A DNA stretch of 48,058 nt, taken from the NCBI GenBank assembly GCA_018970165.1, contig JAGWWZ010000010.1:1-48058 (forward strand), in the 5' to 3' direction. The position numbers and the translations under genes were made by a program. Shown here one piece after another: positions 12,031 to 35,527 of this stretch. The notes beneath the pieces were generated by a model, which was given only the letters and a program-made list of their open reading frames with translations, had not been told where the DNA came from and did no database searches. Source of the DNA: Planctomycetota bacterium. Lineage in GTDB: Bacteria > Planctomycetota > Planctomycetia > Pirellulales > Pirellulaceae. The stretch's first letter is position 1. Each line of letters starts with the position of its first letter.

Positions 12031-13911
12031 TCACTCAACCATAATGGGATGGGGCAAGCCGCGGGGATCGAGTTCCACAGCAATCGTCTCCCATTCGATG
12101 GGTCCCTCGGGTGGGATATTTAATCGAACAGCCCATCCGTACCAAATGGGAGGATCGACTGGATAGTAGTCGAAGACAAAATTTCCGAGACTGTAGACGA
12201 TTGGCCGACCTCGGTAGCTGTCGACGGTTTGCACCACGTGCGGATGAGCCCCGATCACGGCGGTTGCTCCTGCGTCGATCAGTCGCTTGGATACCAACTG
12301 CTCACGTTCCCCTGGCATCGGCACCATCTCGCTTCCCCAGTGGATGTAGGGGATGACGATGTCGGCGTTGAGGGTCTTTTTCGCGTATTCGATATCTTCA
12401 ATCGCCCACTTAGGTCGAAAGGGTGCATTGCCAGCGCGTGACTCTGTCGCTTGGTAATTCTTTTTTTGGAAATCGTTGTAGCCTAGCAAAACGATCCGTT
12501 TGTCTCGCACCTCGAGCATCAAGCCGCTACGCGCCGAGTCGATGTCATCGCCACCTCCGAAATATCCGACATCCGCCTTCTTGAGAACATCGAGGCATTC
12601 GAGCAGTCCGTCCGGGCCGAAATCGAGCGTGTGGTTGTTCGCAACACTCAAGGCATGAAAATATTTCTTCAGGTAATTCTCTGATCCTTGTGCTCCTCGA
12701 AAGATGTAAGGCTTATTGACTTGCTGTCCTCCGCGACCGAGGACGCATTCCAAGTTGCCGATCGTAACATCTGCGTCGAGCAAAAATTGCGAACAATGCT
12801 CAAACGGATCGATACCCGAAGCGATCGCATGTCCCGGTCCATTATCGAGCATGATGTCTCCGACGAACAGCAATCGAATCGGACGATCTTTTTCGTGCTT
12901 CTGAATCTCCCAAGGAGTCATCTCGGCGACCACGCGAAAACCGAGATTGACACATCGCGTATCGATGGTGTTCCAGTTGCGGAAGCTGGAACGAGCCCAA
13001 AGCGGAAACGAATTCCAAGCACCCCCACGGCGGACTTTCACGACCCCTTGTTTCGGCCCTTGAGGATCCTTCGTCGGTGAGTAGCTGTAATACTTTTCAT
13101 CATGCCAATCCGCGGTCCATTCCCAAACGTTCCCATGCATGTCATAGATCCCAAATAGATTCGGGGCGTAAGAGGCAACGGGTACGGGAAAGGGTGGAGG
13201 CTCCGAGGGGTCAATCTCGAGATCCTGCACCGCTTGACGAATCGTTTCGGGACGTGGCACAAGCGTACGGGCTTTGGATAAGATGTCGGTCTTGGTATTG
13301 CCGACCGAATAGTAGTCTTTTGTCCCTGCGCGGTTGGCGTATTCCCACTCGGCTTCGGTCGGCAGTCGGACGATACGACGTTGTTTGTCGGATAGCCAAC
13401 GGCAATACGCTTGGCAATCCTCCCAGGTCACGTTGACGACGGGGTGCGAATCGGTTTGTGGGTAACCGGGATCAAGCCAAGAGAATCGAGGATCTCGTCC
13501 AAGGCATTTCCGAAGGGCCGGGTCATACCCCCAGCCGCCGGTACTATCGACTTCGGCTCGAGTCTTGTATCCGGTCTCTTCAGTGAATGCGCGAAACTGT
13601 CCGACGGTGACTTCCGTGCTCGCGATGAGAAACGGTTTGGTGATCTCCACCGGATGCTGCGGGTACTCGTCACTAAAGTAATCCGCTTCTCGCCCATACT
13701 CCGCGAAGTCCTTAGCTAGTTTATCTGCTGGGACTTGGGATCCCATCAGGAAACGGCCTGAAGGGATGGTGACCCATGTGATGTCAGTGGCAGGATTCGC
13801 TTTATCGTTGCTTTCGCGGGGCACGCTTTGCGCGAGACCGTATTCCAACATGGAAGCCCAGAAGATGGCAAACAGGAAGATTGCAACGACTCGACATGCG
13901 GAGATTGGCAT
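12031..13911 (-). CDS. FGE-like (SUMF1) / CapA fusion protein
   Basis: A 626-residue exported protein: signal peptide about 1-28 ending near YGLAQS, an FGE-sulfatase domain about 45-335 (IPSGRFLMGSQ, TEVTVGQFRAF, NVTWEDCQAYCRWLS, RLPTEAEWEYANRAGT, MHGNVWEWTADW, RRGGAWNS, NLGFRVV), and a CapA/PGA_cap metallophosphoesterase-like domain about 345-610. CapA motifs are complete: LLFVGDIMLD, GNLECVL, ANNHTLDFG, IHWGSEM, GAHPHVV and YSLGNFVFD. The FGE part lacks the catalytic Cys pair near its end (ARSSFRNWNT where active enzymes have Cys), so it is probably a binding or scaffold domain. CapA proteins take part in poly-gamma-glutamate or related polymer metabolism. Fusion seen directly; joint role inferred. 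Confidence 0.88.
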   Translation of the reverse strand: MPISACRVVAIFLFAIFWASMLEYGLAQSVPRESNDKANPATDITWVTIPSGRFLMGSQVPADKLAKDFAEYGREADYFSDEYPQHPVEITKPFLIASTEVTVGQFRAFTEETGYKTRAEVDSTGGWGYDPALRKCLGRDPRFSWLDPGYPQTDSHPVVNVTWEDCQAYCRWLSDKQRRIVRLPTEAEWEYANRAGTKDYYSVGNTKTDILSKARTLVPRPETIRQAVQDLEIDPSEPPPFPVPVASYAPNLFGIYDMHGNVWEWTADWHDEKYYSYSPTKDPQGPKQGVVKVRRGGAWNSFPLWARSSFRNWNTIDTRCVNLGFRVVAEMTPWEIQKHEKDRPIRLLFVGDIMLDNGPGHAIASGIDPFEHCSQFLLDADVTIGNLECVLGRGGQQVNKPYIFRGAQGSENYLKKYFHALSVANNHTLDFGPDGLLECLDVLKKADVGYFGGGDDIDSARSGLMLEVRDKRIVLLGYNDFQKKNYQATESRAGNAPFRPKWAIEDIEYAKKTLNADIVIPYIHWGSEMVPMPGEREQLVSKRLIDAGATAVIGAHPHVVQTVDSYRGRPIVYSLGNFVFDYYPVDPPIWYGWAVRLNIPPEGPIEWETIAVELDPRGLPHPIMVE

Positions 13912-21489: not shown

Positions 21490-23730
21490 TCAGGGACGGA
21501 CGGGAATGGGGTACAGGCGCTCTGGAGATGTCGAAGGGTTGTTTATCTTTACTTTGAAGCATAGCCGCACGGCGGTGATCTGGCGGCCCCCGATGGCTTG
21601 CACGGGTACTTGATCCCGACGCGAAGTCCAATTGCTGACAGGCTCCGATATAAATCCGAAGACGACCGCCCGCTCGAGTTTCAACAAATCGGAGCATTCC
21701 AAATTGGACAAGTAGCGGTTGGTCAGTCCCGTGTAAGGCGTCCCCCCTGAGGAACTATGGAAGCTGAGCAGTTCAGCAAGACGGTTGATGTTGGTGGTAT
21801 CGTTAGGGTTCCAAGCGACACCGACTTCCTCTCCGGCGATGAACGCACGGCGTTGCAGGCGACGGGTGATGTCCTTGGGAATGGTTGTCGCGATAGGAAT
21901 CTGCTCACCGGGTCGAATCCGCGCAGGGATGGAGTAGGCACGACCGGCGAAATAAAGGGTTGCATCGAGTAGGTCAACCGACAGGGGATTGATGCAGGAT
22001 CCTTGCAGCAAGTCATCTTTCCCGGAAATCGTCGACAGGTTATTCCCGCCCAAGGCAATATCGATCGATTCCGTCCAATGGCTGACCAAAGCCTTCGTCC
22101 CGGCCGCGGGGAAACCTAGTCCGATCAACTCGCTAGAATTTGCTGTCGGCGAACACAAGACTTCGTAGGTGGGTAACCCTAGTTGCGTGGTTACGTTGGA
22201 TTCAAATCCGCCGAGCCCTTTTCCAGGCTGCCCCTGCCAGTCGACGCGATTGGGCTGAGGCTTTGAGCCAGGGTCTTGCGTTGGAGACAGCGATCGGTGA
22301 TGCGCCTGAAAATCATAAACCCCACGTCTCCCCGCATAATAGCGCATGAACGACCGACCATTAAGGGTTCTGGTTTCGTCATTCCAATCGATGACCTCGA
22401 GAGCATTGATCGTCGGCATACTGGGCTTCCATGACCGAGCAAGCATGGCGCTACCAAACATCGTTGCTAGCGAAGCAGCTAAGAGAGTCCACCAAGTCCA
22501 ACGCGGTCGCTTCCACCAACGGGATACTACGAAATAGTCGAAGGGCCCAATGACAAGAGCCAGCAGACACGCAATCAGAACCAACTGACCGAGATTCCCT
22601 AACTGCAGTTTTGGAAAGTTGTCGAGCATGGCATTGAGCTGACCGGACAATTCGTCGAAGCTACGGAAGACCTGGCGATTGGTATCCTTTTCAACCTTCT
22701 CCCAGCTTTCCCTCAGCAGATACTTTACGAACGGACCTCTCGTTTCCCAGGCCAACAATTGGGGGGAGTCGATTTCAGTCGCGATCCAAAGAACACTCCC
22801 CATGCCATAGGCCCAATTCGCGATGAATGGAAACTTGATTCGATCGCTGGTCAAACTCCCAACCTCGACTCTTCCCTGCTGGAGCCTGACGAGGGAACAG
22901 GTAAGCGGCGACAACTGCTGCTGAGATCCCATGAGGGATTCCACAGGCCCTGTTTCGCAATCCGTTGCAGTCCCAATTAGTTCTCCGGGAATCATCGCGG
23001 CTAATTCGGGGTGCTTTGCTAATGGCATCGCATGCTCTCCCCAACTCAAAACAAGTTGCCCACCTCGCTGCGTCCAGGATGCGATCGCTTGACGCTGCGA
23101 TTCCTGAATGCCCGTGTTGATCTCAAGGCTGCTCGAGCAGAAGACAAGGACATCGATACCCGCGTATGCGTCAGCGTGTGAAGGCAACTCTTGCAGGCGC
23201 GTGAGTTCAGATACCGAGAACTCTCCCCACGCATTTCCAACCGATCTCATAGCGATCTGATTCAATCGCAATTCTTGTCCGATGCCGACAATCCACGGTT
23301 GATCCGAAGGGATGGCGAGCCCTCGTTCCTCATCGTTGATCGTTCTGTCCAATAAAACTTTCTTTGCACGGTCCTCGATTCGGATTCGGATCGGTCGATT
23401 TCCACGTCCATGCCTTGCAATTACCTCGACCTTGGCCGAGATATCACCTCCTTGGGTATCGAATGCCCAAGATGGATCGCGGTAAATAACGGGGACTCCT
23501 TCGCCATCGACACTTTGGATTGACACAAAACCCGAGAGGGGCGAGGCTGACTTGATTTCCAGCAGGTGACGCGTTGGAAATCCAACTTTCCAGATGCCAT
23601 TCAAACCCGATGCAACTTTGCATTCGATCGGTTGGTCACTCTGTCCCAAAGCGACAGATGGCCACCAGATCAAGGCAGCCATCATCAGGAAAATAATCGG
23701 AAACGGCGATGCAAGCCGTGTCATCGACAA
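21490..23730 (-). CDS. Large exported membrane protein, unknown function
   Basis: Not assigned to a named family with confidence. The 746-residue protein has a signal peptide (ending near WPSVALGQ), then a periplasmic region with a Rossmann-like segment near 185-245 (YAGIDVLVFCSSS, IASWTQRGGQLVLSWGEHA) resembling glutamine-amidotransferase-like folds that accompany ABC exporters. Two hydrophobic helices lie at about 380-400 and 415-440 (LVLIACLLALVIGPFDYF; WWTLLAASLATMFGSAML), followed by a second large domain. It sits directly upstream of the ABC ATPase (13 nt) and 9 nt after DUF1080, so an ABC accessory role is the best guess from context. Confidence 0.75.
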   Translation of the reverse strand: MSMTRLASPFPIIFLMMAALIWWPSVALGQSDQPIECKVASGLNGIWKVGFPTRHLLEIKSASPLSGFVSIQSVDGEGVPVIYRDPSWAFDTQGGDISAKVEVIARHGRGNRPIRIRIEDRAKKVLLDRTINDEERGLAIPSDQPWIVGIGQELRLNQIAMRSVGNAWGEFSVSELTRLQELPSHADAYAGIDVLVFCSSSLEINTGIQESQRQAIASWTQRGGQLVLSWGEHAMPLAKHPELAAMIPGELIGTATDCETGPVESLMGSQQQLSPLTCSLVRLQQGRVEVGSLTSDRIKFPFIANWAYGMGSVLWIATEIDSPQLLAWETRGPFVKYLLRESWEKVEKDTNRQVFRSFDELSGQLNAMLDNFPKLQLGNLGQLVLIACLLALVIGPFDYFVVSRWWKRPRWTWWTLLAASLATMFGSAMLARSWKPSMPTINALEVIDWNDETRTLNGRSFMRYYAGRRGVYDFQAHHRSLSPTQDPGSKPQPNRVDWQGQPGKGLGGFESNVTTQLGLPTYEVLCSPTANSSELIGLGFPAAGTKALVSHWTESIDIALGGNNLSTISGKDDLLQGSCINPLSVDLLDATLYFAGRAYSIPARIRPGEQIPIATTIPKDITRRLQRRAFIAGEEVGVAWNPNDTTNINRLAELLSFHSSSGGTPYTGLTNRYLSNLECSDLLKLERAVVFGFISEPVSNWTSRRDQVPVQAIGGRQITAVRLCFKVKINNPSTSPERLYPIPVRP

Positions 23731-26141: not shown

Positions 26142-28754
26142 TTATCGTTCGACAGGATTCCGCGCTGAATGATCGGCCGTTCCAAGCAGATGCTCTGAGA
26201 AGTATTCGTGCATGCGGCGTTGGCCGTATGCACCTCCGATACCGTGACCGCCATTGGGCACGACCAGCAAGTCAAACGATTTATCGGCGCGGATGAGTGC
26301 ATCGACCAAGCGCATGGTCGACTCGGGCGGAACATTCGTATCCATCTCGCCGACGATCAGGAGCAACTTCCCGCCGAGTCGCCCGGCGTTATCGATGTTT
26401 GAAGACTCCGCATAATGAGCGTCTACAGGGTAACCCATCCACTGTTCGTTCCAGGACGCTTTGTCCATCCGATTGTCATGGCACCCGCATGCCGCGACAG
26501 CGACCTTATAGAATTCAGGATGAAACAGGACCGCTCCGGCTGCATTCTGTCCACCTGCCGATACTCCGTAGATGCCGACGCGCGAGAGATCGATTTCAGG
26601 ATACTTGGCGGCTGCTGCGCGCATCCATGCGATCCGATCGGGAAAGCCCGCATCCTTGAGATTGTGCCAACATACATCATGAAAGGCTTTGGAACGATTG
26701 GCGGTCCCCATGCCGTCGATTTTGACGACGATGAAACCGAGGCTTGTGAGGGATTCGTAACGGGACGATGGTTGAAAGCTCTTTGGTACATAGGAACTCT
26801 GGGGCCCAGCGTAGATGTCCTCGATGATCGGATACTTGCGATTGGGGTCAAAGTCCTTGGGACGGCAAATGATTCCCCATATCTCGGTTTGCCCATCGCG
26901 ACCGACCGCGGAGAACACCTCGGGAGGACGCCAACGAGTTTGTTGCAGCGATGCGATATCTGATGTTTCAAGGTCGCAAACCTTCGTCCCATCGGCTACT
27001 CGCCGCAATTGATTCACCGGGGCCATGTCTACTCGCGAAAACGTCGCTACCACATATTGGCGATCCGGTGACCATTGAACGGTATGGTTCCCGTTCTCCT
27101 CTGTGAGCCAAGTCCAATTCCCGCTGTCCAGATCTGCGGTCGCGTAGTGAATATGATAAGGATCCTGGCCCTCGCGCCCCGAGACGCTGACGGCGATCCG
27201 ACGAGCTTGCTCATCCACCCACTCAATGCCGCGCACCACGTTTCCCGATGGCGTCAGAACACGTTTTTCCTGTCCTGTCGAGGCATCGATCAGAATCAAT
27301 TGACGCCAACCGTATTTTTCGGTCGCAAAAATGATTTCGTTGGATTTCTCGAGCCATTGGGTTTTCGGGACCGAATGATTCTCTGTATGCACGGTCCAGA
27401 TAAAGGTGTCCGACAGTTCGTCAATGATGTTGCGGACCATTCCGTCGCGAATTCGAATCTCGATCAATCGAAAGCGACCGTGACCACGATCTACCTGTTG
27501 GTATGTGAAACTCGCTCCATCGGCGTCGAATCGGAGTTCGGGCTGGAGCCACTCATGTTCGAAGCGATCAACCAAAGGCTTGAACTGCCGAGCCTCCTCG
27601 ACATGGAACAGATTCAATTCGTACGATGGGAATGGGTCCCCTGGGAGCACATACGGTCGGCTTTCGAGTTTGGCTCGCCCACCTTCGGGAGGACTGGAAC
27701 GAATCCAATGGACGGGAAGCTTCTCTACCTGACTGATCCGAAATGCAATCAGCACGCTCGAATCAGGGGACCAGGAAAGAAGCCCGTAGGGATCTTCCTC
27801 CGTTCCATCGTTGCTGACTCGTATTTTCATCTGCGACTCTCTGCGCATCGCAACGATATTGTGATCTTCGACCCAGGCTCTCCATTCTCCATTGGGAGAT
27901 ACGGTTTCTGCCGAGCTAGGTTGATTTGAAGAGCGGCGGCGACCAGTGGCTTCCCCTCGAGGCGACCGAGGATTGGATCCCTGATCCTCGATCGGGCGAC
28001 CATCGAGTGCGACGGTGGACGGCGTGTCTTGGGCCGTAACTCGACCGAGAACCTTGCCGCTCTCGTCGACGATCAACCAGCGGTGTCCGCCGAATGTATG
28101 TTGGTCGCGCGATGCACCCGCTGCGATCTTTCCGTAACTTCGTTTGTTGCCGTCTCCTTCGAGCCAAAAAATCTCTACGGACTTATCTGATTTGTTCTGG
28201 AACGTAATCGCGGATTCCTCCCCTCTCGTCGCTCCGAAACGACGAGATTTGCCTGCGCTATCAGTATTCTGAAGAGATTCATGCCTAGTTTTGTCGAGTA
28301 GAGAAAGCTGAAGCGTAGAAGGATTCCAACGATACGATTCTCTCTGCCCTATGAGAACAAGCGAGTCTTCACCGTCGGTGTAATGAAGTCGTTCGAATGG
28401 CAGTCGCATCGGGTCGGTCTCTGTTTCTAGGTGATCCTCTCCTCGAGCCATGTCATCCAGGGCCTGCGCGACTAGTTTCTGATCCATCGCGATTTTACGA
28501 ATCGATTTCTCCGCATCGACATGGATGAATTCCCGTTTTCCATCGGGTAGGTCATTGCGATACCAAAAACAATTGGTCGAACCGATCCAATGGGGTTCGA
28601 CGCGGTGTTTGAAGATTTTAGGTCCCGGCGAGGATTGCTGTGCATTTTGCTGTGGCGATGAATTGGTATGGTTTTGAGGAGCAGCCCACGTCGATATCGC
28701 GAAACACAAAGAGAAAAAAGAGATGACGATGGTTGTGAAGAGACGTTGCATCAT
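26142..28754 (-). CDS. S9 prolyl-oligopeptidase-type peptidase with VHL beta-like domain
   Basis: An exported serine peptidase of 870 residues in the DPP IV/prolyl oligopeptidase family, which cleaves short peptides next to proline. Signal peptide about 1-25; beta-propeller about 280-600; C-terminal alpha/beta hydrolase with S732 in GIYGVSAGGQ, D805 in VGEMDTNVPPES and H837 in VPNGGHGIGG. Between about 180 and 255 lies an extra domain (ITFQNKSDKSVEIFWLEGDG, GHRWLIVD, ALDGRPI) that aligns without gaps to the human pVHL beta domain: W197, Y207, T220, H224, W226 match W88, Y98, S111, H115, W117. The start ATG overlaps the pseudokinase stop by 4 nt (ATGA). Peptidase call certain; VHL-like domain strong by motif spacing; hydroxyproline binding is inference. 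Confidence 0.92.
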   Translation of the reverse strand: MMQRLFTTIVISFFSLCFAISTWAAPQNHTNSSPQQNAQQSSPGPKIFKHRVEPHWIGSTNCFWYRNDLPDGKREFIHVDAEKSIRKIAMDQKLVAQALDDMARGEDHLETETDPMRLPFERLHYTDGEDSLVLIGQRESYRWNPSTLQLSLLDKTRHESLQNTDSAGKSRRFGATRGEESAITFQNKSDKSVEIFWLEGDGNKRSYGKIAAGASRDQHTFGGHRWLIVDESGKVLGRVTAQDTPSTVALDGRPIEDQGSNPRSPRGEATGRRRSSNQPSSAETVSPNGEWRAWVEDHNIVAMRRESQMKIRVSNDGTEEDPYGLLSWSPDSSVLIAFRISQVEKLPVHWIRSSPPEGGRAKLESRPYVLPGDPFPSYELNLFHVEEARQFKPLVDRFEHEWLQPELRFDADGASFTYQQVDRGHGRFRLIEIRIRDGMVRNIIDELSDTFIWTVHTENHSVPKTQWLEKSNEIIFATEKYGWRQLILIDASTGQEKRVLTPSGNVVRGIEWVDEQARRIAVSVSGREGQDPYHIHYATADLDSGNWTWLTEENGNHTVQWSPDRQYVVATFSRVDMAPVNQLRRVADGTKVCDLETSDIASLQQTRWRPPEVFSAVGRDGQTEIWGIICRPKDFDPNRKYPIIEDIYAGPQSSYVPKSFQPSSRYESLTSLGFIVVKIDGMGTANRSKAFHDVCWHNLKDAGFPDRIAWMRAAAAKYPEIDLSRVGIYGVSAGGQNAAGAVLFHPEFYKVAVAACGCHDNRMDKASWNEQWMGYPVDAHYAESSNIDNAGRLGGKLLLIVGEMDTNVPPESTMRLVDALIRADKSFDLLVVPNGGHGIGGAYGQRRMHEYFSEHLLGTADHSARNPVER

Positions 28755-32519: not shown

Positions 32520-33290
32520 ATGATCGTCGCCACCCACCTTCGGAAACAGTTCGTGGTGCGCGGTAAGCCTTTGGTGGCCGTCAATGGTATCAGCTTCCAT
32601 GTGAAGGAGGGAGAAGTTTATGGCTTGCTCGGGCCCAACGGAGCGGGCAAAACTACGTCGATTCGCATGGTTATGGGGCTACTTGAGCCCGACGAAGGCT
32701 ACGTCGAAATCGGGGGGATGCGAACCGATCAGCACGCATCGCTGATTCGCAAAGAGCTGGGACTGATATCTACCAACGATGGAGTTTACCCTTGGCTAAG
32801 TGTGCGCGAGATGCTCCTGTACTTTGCGGACCTTTATGCCGTGGAGGTGCCGATCGCAAAAGAGCGACTCGAGGAACTGGCCGGCTTGTTGGGAATCCGC
32901 GACTTTCTCGATCAGCGATGCAGCACCCTTAGCACCGGGCAAAAGCAGCGAGTTACCCTCGCTCGTGGTTTGATGCACGACCCACCTGTGATGTTGCTCG
33001 ATGAACCAACACGAGGGCTCGATGTGGTTGGAAGCCAGACGGTTTTTGAATTCATCGACTTCCTTAAGAAGCGAGGCAAGTCGGTTCTTTTATCAACCCA
33101 TCGACTCGATGAAGCGGAACGGGTTTGCGACCGTTTCGGACTGTTGCACCATGGCACCATCCGATACGAAGGGACTCTCTCGGACTTGCGAGCCCTGACC
33201 GGCAAAGAACATCTGGTCGATATGTTTATCGATTTGATCCAAAGCGACCGAACACAGGCACCTATCTCCAGCAGCATGGGAGCCGCTTAG
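32520..33290 (+). CDS. ABC transporter ATPase (NatA-like)
   Basis: A 256-residue ATP-binding subunit of an ABC-2-type exporter. Walker A LLGPNGAGKTTSIRMV (34-49), signature LSTGQKQRVTLARG near 138, Walker B PVMLLDEPTRGLDV near 158 and switch His in LLSTHRLDEAE are complete. It overlaps the next gene by one base (TAGTG, the stop's G begins the GTG start), and the downstream protein is the membrane partner fused to a CPBP protease. In that arrangement the family is usually called NatA/NatB. The substrate of planctomycete members is not established. It probably shares the promoter of trpD, 36 nt upstream. Confidence 0.93.
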   Translation: MIVATHLRKQFVVRGKPLVAVNGISFHVKEGEVYGLLGPNGAGKTTSIRMVMGLLEPDEGYVEIGGMRTDQHASLIRKELGLISTNDGVYPWLSVREMLLYFADLYAVEVPIAKERLEELAGLLGIRDFLDQRCSTLSTGQKQRVTLARGLMHDPPVMLLDEPTRGLDVVGSQTVFEFIDFLKKRGKSVLLSTHRLDEAERVCDRFGLLHHGTIRYEGTLSDLRALTGKEHLVDMFIDLIQSDRTQAPISSSMGAA

Positions 33291-35527
33291 TGCAGGAATA
33301 TTTTTCCAATGGACGGTTGGGGCGGTTGTGTCTCAAGGAGCTTCGCGAAAGCCTCCGAGATCGCCGAACGATCGTAACGCTTTTCTTGATGCCGATTTTG
33401 GTTTATCCATTGCTCAGCATGGCCATGCAACGGCTGATCGTGGGGAGCGTTCGCGGGACATCGGAGAAACAGGAATACCTGATCGGTGTTGCTGATGAAG
33501 AAACCGCGCAAATATTCAATAACTCCATTCGGGAAACGCAGCGAGCTATCAACGCAGGAGTTCGTCCGTCGATCGATATTGTTCGTAGCCAAACATCTTC
33601 CAAAAACAAATCTGACCCCGTCGCAACCGATAGCGATCACCCCGATTCCGATCATACAGATGATCTGCAGGCTTTATTCCGACTCGCGATGCCGGAAAGA
33701 AGCAGCACGAGCGAAGCATTGAAAGACGGATTGCTGGATCTAGCGGTCATTCAAGCAAAACAAAAGGATTTGCGGTCCAGAGATGGCCAATCGATCCCTG
33801 TCTTTGAGTTCGAGCTTCAATTCCGCGAAGGGGATCTACGGAGCGAGGGAGCGATGCTCGAATTTCGCAAGGCGATGCAACTGGTCAATGACTATCAGGC
33901 CGCGATGATTCGCGGCCCATCGTTGCCAACGGCAGTGCAAGTGAAGGCTGCTTCCATCGGCAAACGATTCGATCCAACGGCGTCGCTCGCAGGGGTCTTA
34001 CCCTTGGTTTTGATTTTGATGACCATAACCGGGGCAGTCTATCCAGCGATCGATTTAACCGCTGGGGAGCGAGAGCGGGGGACGATGGAAGCGATGATCG
34101 CTACACCGGCTCCGCGGTTTGTTTTGCTACTCAGCAAGTACGTTGCAGTTGTCACCGTCGCGGTATTGACAGCCTTGGCCAACCTGTTCGCGAGTTGGAT
34201 TACATTGTCGATTGGTGGATTGGGTCGAGCATTGCTTGGGGAGCAGGGTTTCTCGGTTTTGGCGTTGCTCCAGATTCTGCCGCTGCTGGTGATCTTTGCC
34301 GCGTTCTTCAGCGCCATCTTGTTGGCGATGTGTTCGTTTGCCCGCAGTTTCAAAGAGGCGCAGGCCTACCTCATTCCAGTCATGTTGGTTTCCCTTGCAC
34401 CGGCGTTGGTCACGCTTATGCCCAACATCGAGTTTTCGACATGGCTGGGTGTTGTGCCGTTGGTGAACATCCTTCTGTTGTCTCGAGACATCATGACCGG
34501 AAGTCCGGCTCCGTTGCCAGCCTTCGCGGCGGTGTTCTCAACGTTGATCTATGCCGCAGCAGCTCTGGTGGTCGCATCCCGTCTATTCGGAGCCGAGTCG
34601 GCGACAGCGGGTTCGCAGGAAAGTTGGTCGGACTTGTTGCAACGCCCCCGCAAAGCAAGGGCTATCCCTGACTTGGGAGAACTCTCTATTTATCTTGCCC
34701 TACTATTCCCAATCTTCTTCATTGTTACCAATCTTACAGGACAATGGATCACCGAGATCGTGCCGCGACTGTGGTGCAATGCGGTAGTGTTGATCCTGAT
34801 GTTCTTGATCGCGCCTGCCTTGTTCGTTTGGTATCGAAGGCTCGACTTTCGCAATACGTTCCTTCTGGACTTTGGCGCATCGAGTTGTTCAAAGCCCGGA
34901 AACTATGGAATTTCCAGCCAACTCGGCTGGTTGATTTCTTCTGTTCTTTTGGGGCTAGGGTTGTGGGTTATTGCGTTTGAGTTGTTCAAGACGTTGAGCG
35001 ATCTGGGTTTCGGGGCCTTATCGTTGGAGCGGTCGGAATCGCTCGACGCATTGAAGAAACAGATTCGTGAGATCCCGTTCTGGATGTTTCTGTTGACCTC
35101 GGCTTTGGTGCCCGCCGTTGCTGAGGAATTCTTTTTTCGAGGTTTCGTTCTGTCGGCCTTTCGCCATCGTTTGTCGGCGGTTTGGTCGATTGCACTGAGC
35201 GCCCTGATTTTTGGGGTTTTTCATGTGATCAGCGGCAGTGTGCTGTCGATCGAGCGGTTTTTCCCAACGCTCTTGTTGGGACTGGCCCTTGGTTTATTGG
35301 CAGTTCGCACTGGCCGACTTTGGCCTGGAATTTTCACGCACGCGATTCACAATGGACTGATGTTCTGGCTGACTCGTTTCGAAGAGCAGGAACTGGAGGG
35401 CTGGTTCGGCAAAGGCAACCAGCACTTCCCGGTGCTTTGGATCACAGCCAGTATGGGAGTCGTTGGTGTAGCAGTTTTGCTGTTGTGGATGTCTTCGTTG
35501 GATCGGTCGCATGAAAACGTATCTTAA
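33290..35527 (+). CDS. ABC-2 permease fused to CPBP intramembrane protease
   Basis: A 745-residue membrane protein. The first two thirds are an ABC-2/NatB-type permease (N-terminal helix near LFLMPILVYPLLS, a large extracytoplasmic region about 55-235, then six helices). The last third is a CPBP (CAAX protease and bacteriocin-processing) domain: EE-x-x-x-R in VAEEFFFRGF near 611, FGVFH near 642, and HAIHN near 685. The GTG start at 33290 overlaps the ATPase stop and is preferred over the earlier frame start at 33125. The combination is a known planctomycete arrangement. The gene ends 17 nt inside the HlyD gene, so expression is coupled. Confidence 0.92.
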   Translation: MQEYFSNGRLGRLCLKELRESLRDRRTIVTLFLMPILVYPLLSMAMQRLIVGSVRGTSEKQEYLIGVADEETAQIFNNSIRETQRAINAGVRPSIDIVRSQTSSKNKSDPVATDSDHPDSDHTDDLQALFRLAMPERSSTSEALKDGLLDLAVIQAKQKDLRSRDGQSIPVFEFELQFREGDLRSEGAMLEFRKAMQLVNDYQAAMIRGPSLPTAVQVKAASIGKRFDPTASLAGVLPLVLILMTITGAVYPAIDLTAGERERGTMEAMIATPAPRFVLLLSKYVAVVTVAVLTALANLFASWITLSIGGLGRALLGEQGFSVLALLQILPLLVIFAAFFSAILLAMCSFARSFKEAQAYLIPVMLVSLAPALVTLMPNIEFSTWLGVVPLVNILLLSRDIMTGSPAPLPAFAAVFSTLIYAAAALVVASRLFGAESATAGSQESWSDLLQRPRKARAIPDLGELSIYLALLFPIFFIVTNLTGQWITEIVPRLWCNAVVLILMFLIAPALFVWYRRLDFRNTFLLDFGASSCSKPGNYGISSQLGWLISSVLLGLGLWVIAFELFKTLSDLGFGALSLERSESLDALKKQIREIPFWMFLLTSALVPAVAEEFFFRGFVLSAFRHRLSAVWSIALSALIFGVFHVISGSVLSIERFFPTLLLGLALGLLAVRTGRLWPGIFTHAIHNGLMFWLTRFEEQELEGWFGKGNQHFPVLWITASMGVVGVAVLLLWMSSLDRSHENVS

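What the first reader, a model, noticed from the sequence alone, without database searches (positions are those of the whole stretch)
28000..28225. A pVHL beta-like, hydroxyproline-pocket domain inside a secreted bacterial prolyl peptidase
Residues about 180-255 of the S9 peptidase align ungapped with the human von Hippel-Lindau beta domain as I remember it: W197, Y207, T220, H224 and W226 fall at the exact spacing of W88, Y98, S111, H115 and W117, which form the hydroxyproline-binding pocket. The motif F-x-N-x-S, the GHxWL core and the DGxPI end also agree. A peptidase family that cleaves beside proline, carrying a reader for hydroxyproline, suggests an enzyme targeted to hydroxyproline-rich proteins such as algal cell-wall glycoproteins or collagens. 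Domain match is seen; the substrate idea is inference.
Basis: partly seen in the sequence, partly recalled or inferred. Interest (0 to 1): 0.85.

Follow-up and report, generated by a model that had tools for sequence, protein, structure and literature searches.

The report
Bacterial peptidase with VHL-like hydroxyproline pocket
A peptidase from an aquatic bacterium, apparently exported, carries a small domain that matches the part of the human tumour suppressor VHL that grips hydroxyproline, and related peptidases that carry it nearly always keep the same five gripping residues, so it may dock the enzyme onto hydroxyproline-containing proteins, which remains to be tested.

Summary
The domain is an accessory insert on flexible linkers in the propeller; related peptidases exist without it. 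All five pocket residues are kept in 74 of 77 S9-fused representatives but in 9 of 26 non-S9 ones, so the fold alone does not force them.
Best reading: an exported serine peptidase with a tethered pVHL-like docking module, ligand probably hydroxyproline. Binding and substrate are untested. Bacterial VHL domains are already in Pfam; seven searches of an open-licence library found no paper on this architecture or pocket.

The parts
26142..28754 (-). S9 serine peptidase gene, 870 aa, with inserted VHL beta domain; start overlaps the stop of the upstream kinase frame by 4 bases
28680..28754 (-). likely Sec signal peptide (aa 1-25), judged by eye
   Evidence: sequence; no predictor was run
28263..28622 (-). 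first part of the propeller region before the insert (about aa 45-164)
   Evidence: model; alignment to VHL-less relatives
28224..28259 (-). flexible linker before the VHL domain (aa 166-177, pLDDT under 50)
27981..28217 (-). pVHL-beta-like domain (aa 180-258; PF01847 match aa 180-231 = 28062-28217)
28164..28166 (-). pocket residue W197 (pVHL W88)
28134..28136 (-). pocket residue Y207 (pVHL Y98)
28095..28097 (-). pocket residue T220 (pVHL S111; Thr in fly VHL)
28083..28085 (-). pocket residue H224 (pVHL H115)
28077..28079 (-). pocket residue W226 (pVHL W117)
27912..27980 (-). flexible linker after the VHL domain (aa 259-281, pLDDT under 50)
27024..27926 (-). DPPIV_N beta-propeller, PF00930 (aa 277-577)
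26193..26765 (-). Peptidase_S9 catalytic domain, PF00326 (aa 664-854), with S732, D805, H837

Best explanation
An exported S9-type serine peptidase in which a pVHL-like beta-sandwich has been inserted, on two flexible linkers, into a loop of the propeller region. SHOWN by sequence and predicted structure: pVHL beta homology, all five hydroxyproline-pocket residues, their strong retention in S9-fused copies, the residues of a catalytic triad. INFERRED: the protein is exported; the domain is a docking module that binds trans-4-hydroxyproline-bearing (or at least proline-bearing) peptide stretches in the pVHL mode, with T220 and H224 holding the 4-hydroxyl, Y207 holding the backbone carbonyl and W197/W226 packing the ring, so that the catalytic unit is kept near hydroxyproline-rich proteins outside the cell, which it then cuts at sites set by its own, probably non-prolyl, S1 pocket.
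Against: No binding data. Coordinates of the models could not be inspected, only their alignments. Subsites beside the pocket differ from pVHL (position 109 is Q in 66 of 76, position 69 is G in 53 of 76). No hydroxyproline-linked neighbour was recognised: kinase, nucleoside hydrolase, transporters and others, and gene order is not conserved. Association with a proline racemase / epimerase family is not significant within kinship strata. The one S9 protein with a C-terminal VHL domain has lost H115 (L098). Many rows were found with the VHL profile itself, which favours conserved columns; in the 26-row set built from the peptidase search the pocket is kept as well, but one of that search's six patterns lies inside the VHL domain.
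Confidence: 0.5

Rival explanations
1. The pocket is a pVHL-like aromatic cage but its ligand is not hydroxyproline: plain proline-rich peptide, a glycan, or another small group. It docks the enzyme on another polymer.
For: The same domain occurs beside sulfatase and LRR domains, several of them with A or N at position 115, so the scaffold is used with altered pockets; neighbouring subsites differ from pVHL.
Against: In S9-fused copies the two side chains that bind the 4-hydroxyl in pVHL, S/T111 and H115, are kept in 77 and 76 of 77.
Confidence: 0.3
2. The domain folds back and binds its own linkers or a neighbouring subunit, acting as a lid or oligomer contact and not as a substrate reader.
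For: It sits between two low-confidence linkers, in a stretch that looks P/R/S-rich by eye in many VHL-less homologues.
Against: Linker sequences are not conserved, and the domain can also sit at the C-terminus, L098, there without H115.
Confidence: 0.12
3. A structural spacer with no ligand; conservation reflects folding only.
For: W117 and N78 are kept in nearly every copy of any architecture.
Against: Y98, H115 and the full set of five relax in non-S9 copies that are no further from human pVHL overall.
Confidence: 0.08

Closest known systems
pVHL (human von Hippel-Lindau protein) beta domain, PF01847
   Same: Fold, five hydroxyproline-pocket residues in register, conserved N78
   Different: Signal-peptide-like start; no alpha domain found; inserted in a peptidase; T for S at 111 (as in fly VHL); altered neighbouring subsites
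Prolyl tripeptidyl aminopeptidase of Porphyromonas gingivalis / DPP4, family S9B
   Different: E205 falls in a gap, E636 is K765; Y604, V629, W632, Y635, Y639 are A733, C758, N761, D764, W768; extra VHL domain
Litorilituus sediminis EMK97_00595, a bacterial hypothetical protein with a VHL beta domain (PMC9002001, passages only)
   Same: Bacterial, predicted secretory, VHL beta domain
   Different: The word 'peptidase' does not occur in the paper's main text; it treats the protein as a possible tumour suppressor; the passages I saw mention hydroxyproline only for HIF

Membership tests
VHL beta domain (PF01847) | Match over the curated score cut-off | tested here: met
   29.9 bits against 21
VHL beta domain (PF01847) | pVHL beta-sandwich fold | tested here: met
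Hydroxyproline reader of the pVHL type | W88, Y98, S/T111, H115, W117 | tested here: met
   W197, Y207, T220, H224, W226; all five in 74 of 77 S9-fused representatives
Hydroxyproline reader of the pVHL type | Selective binding of hydroxylated over plain proline | not testable with these tools
   needs binding assays
pVHL, E3 ligase substrate receptor | C-terminal alpha domain binding Elongin C | tested here: not met
   Pfam lists only the beta-domain VHL family in the protein; the domain is followed by a low-confidence linker and the propeller
S9B / DPP4-type peptidase | DPPIV_N propeller plus Peptidase_S9 domain and Ser-Asp-His triad | tested here: met
S9B / DPP4-type peptidase | Acidic residues that anchor the substrate N-terminus (PTP-A E205, E636; roles recalled) | tested here: not met
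   E205 falls in a gap of the window protein and E636 aligns with K765, invariant in 40 of 40 rows. One row, L134, has a longer stretch near the E205 place
S9B / DPP4-type peptidase | Hydrophobic prolyl S1 pocket (PTP-A Y604, V629, W632, Y635, Y639; roles recalled) | tested here: not met
   A733, C758, N761, D764, W768, invariant in 40 of 40 rows
S9B / DPP4-type peptidase | Cleavage after proline | not testable with these tools
   needs an enzyme assay

The most novel reading that the evidence does not exclude
Bacteria use an extracellular hydroxyproline reader, homologous to the one animals use for oxygen sensing, to aim secreted peptidases at hydroxyproline-rich proteins; the pocket existed in a secreted bacterial docking module, and animal pVHL either descends from that pool or shares its ancestor.
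Probability: 0.35. Interest if true: 0.88.

Novelty: new variant of a known kind. Interest (0 to 1): 0.66.

Why it matters
The pVHL pocket is the textbook case of reading prolyl hydroxylation. Finding the same five residues under strong constraint in bacterial peptidases of Planctomycetota and Verrucomicrobiota (and on one Poribacteria contig) would give hydroxyproline recognition a history across domains of life, suggest how environmental bacteria could target collagen- or extensin-like proteins, and offer bacterial hydroxyproline-binding modules as reagents. It is directly testable with one small domain.

Tried and rejected
Link to hydroxyproline catabolism: full-length PF05544 (proline racemase / hydroxyproline epimerase, strong matches, typed by hand into) occurs in 45 of 54 VHL+ and 16 of 45 VHL- genomes (p 1e-6), but within the genus, other genera of the family and other families of the order p is 1.0, 0.11 and 0.58, so I treat it as kinship. 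The own genome has one full-length match with both Cys motifs (read by eye), one weak match below the cut-off (23.1 bits), and one PF13640 oxygenase; all lie on other contigs and none is shown to act on hydroxyproline.

Conserved neighbourhood: of 15 neighbouring window frames searched in the 80 named loci, 4 had any hit: two ABC-like frames and the kinase with 27-35% matches in one or two loci each, and one 77% hit in one locus; no conserved order.

Literature: nine searches, seven on bacterial or S9-linked VHL, one on pocket residues (71), one on hydroxyproline and Planctomycetes (74). In the rows listed, only PMC9002001 concerned a bacterial VHL domain. The library holds open-licence papers only.

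A1 used 39 of these 80 plus the window: I checked 43, 41 translated cleanly (L078 and L125 did not), and L098 (C-terminal VHL) and L105 (ambiguous residues) were left out. A3 used 25 of 26 VHL hits in the named loci plus the window; L115 was left out as non-S9 without a Pfam VHL hit. Only the best 30 loci were fetched, so weaker VHL matches are under-represented in the pocket counts. Pocket counts are over 103 representatives of 145 domain hits; the 145 include places fetched twice, collapsed by the 80% clustering. In one search at most 13 candidates a genome were scored, at most 21, so those tallies are lower bounds.

Not reached: coordinates of the models, a signal-peptide predictor, Proteobacteria and animals.

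Full report
OBSERVATION. The gene is 26142-28754 on the minus strand, 870 aa. Pfam finds Peptidase_S9 at 664-854, DPPIV_N at 277-577 and the VHL beta domain at 180-231 with 29.9 bits against a cut-off of 21. A PF01847 search of the own genome finds this place only, and rings in 0 of 14 control genomes. phmmer of the 103-residue stretch against all PDB sequences returns human pVHL first at E 3.5e-6. The alignment puts W197, Y207, T220, H224 and W226 on W88, Y98, S111, H115 and W117. The match is ungapped from its start through W117; gaps follow.

WHERE IT LIVES. Nearest named relatives are four Pirellula MAGs (Planctomycetota, Pirellulaceae), 61-65% identical, the rest of the aligned rows at most 56%; the window's own name was not given. 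PF01847 occurs in 54 of 99 near relatives, at least 56 of 392 genomes drawn from the phylum and at least 18 of 240 drawn from the phylum of a Limisphaera genome, Verrucomicrobiota. Of 108 VHL hits in the first loci, 93 were in S9-like frames. Among 39 homologues aligned with the window, 21 plus the window carry the insert; in the other 18 the stretch matching window residues 140-290 is only 47-90 residues long against 134-151. On a quick peptidase tree built without the insert, presence changes 5 times, at least 3 of them forced by starred branches. One Verrucomicrobiae protein, L098, has the domain at its C-terminus. Other partners are sulfatases (L018, L204 and, below the VHL cut-off, L206, all at the C-terminus; L015 between two sulfatase domains), leucine-rich repeats (L010, L024, L168, L177) and an M90/ATLF-like metallopeptidase domain (L157 over the cut-offs; L149, L158, L166 below them).

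THE POCKET. Over 103 representatives (<80% identity) of 145 domain hits, the 77 S9-fused ones keep W88 in 76, Y98 in 77, S/T111 in 77 (74 Thr), H115 in 76 and W117 in 76; 74 keep all five. With N78 these are the six least variable of 54 columns. The 26 non-S9 ones keep all five in only 9, with W88 in 21, Y98 in 19, S/T111 in 24 and H115 in 14, yet W117 in 26 and N78 in 25. Fisher p is 2e-10, and 2e-6 after dropping seven divergent rows chosen afterwards; rows are related, so these p values overstate. Outside these positions both groups are equally far from human pVHL (25% and 24%). So the fold alone does not enforce the set; S9 fusion goes with it. A review of pVHL ligands states that the Hyp hydroxyl bonds Ser111 and His115, the carbonyl bonds Tyr98, and His110 contributes its backbone carbonyl (PMC9528729, passages). 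That fits what is seen: the first three fixed, 110 free (H in 43 of 77). Fly VHL has Thr at 111 (PMC4195687, passages). Caution: many rows were found with the VHL profile. In the 26-row set from the peptidase search (25 loci plus window), N78, W88, Y98, T111 and W117 are invariant and H115 is 25 of 26, but one of the six search patterns lies in the domain. Neighbouring subsites are not those of pVHL: 109 is Q in 66 of 76 and 69 is G in 53 of 76.

THE ENZYME. S732, D805 and H837 align with the PTP-A triad and are invariant in 40 of 40 rows. PTP-A E205 lies in a segment absent from the window protein; E636 becomes K765; Y604, V629, W632, Y635 and Y639 become A733, C758, N761, D764 and W768. K765 and the five replacements are all in the invariant list. 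L134 alone has about 22 extra residues near the E205 place, which could supply another anchor there. That E205/E636 hold the N-terminus and the others form S1 is recalled. Hence DPP4-like or prolyl-specific activity should not be assumed, and this holds for VHL-plus and VHL-less rows alike.

MECHANISM. Most likely the VHL domain is a tethered docking module on an exported serine peptidase, with hydroxyproline its likeliest ligand (about 0.5); other ligands, self-binding or a spacer are the rivals. Gene context does not help, and the epimerase association is not distinguishable from kinship.

NOVELTY. Bacterial VHL domains are known to Pfam, and one was described in PMC9002001 (passages). In the held open-licence library I found nothing on S9-VHL fusions or on the pocket in bacteria. 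I file it as a new variant of a known kind.

Noticed in passing
L080:5845-10470 (Blastopirellula marina DSM 3645): A single 1542-aa frame joins VHL, DPPIV_N, Peptidase_S9 and DUF885.
   Followed up: no
L205:1-1818 (-): Four VHL-like domains in tandem in a 606-aa stretch of a longer frame from the Verrucomicrobiota search, pocket largely lost in three; Pfam itself lists one stretch.
   Followed up: partly
L189:1435-1815 and L202:1435-1830 (-): Small stand-alone VHL proteins of 127 and 132 aa.
   Followed up: no
L015, L018, L204, L206: Sulfatases with a VHL domain; position 115 is A in L015 and L206, H in L018 and L204.
   Followed up: partly
window 33125-35527 (+): ABC-2 membrane protein fused to a CAAX-type (Rce1-like) protease domain.
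   Followed up: no
window 12031-13911 (-): FGE-sulfatase domain fused to a PGA_cap capsule-synthesis domain.
   Followed up: no
window 21490-23730 (-): 746-aa frame with no Pfam match.
   Followed up: no
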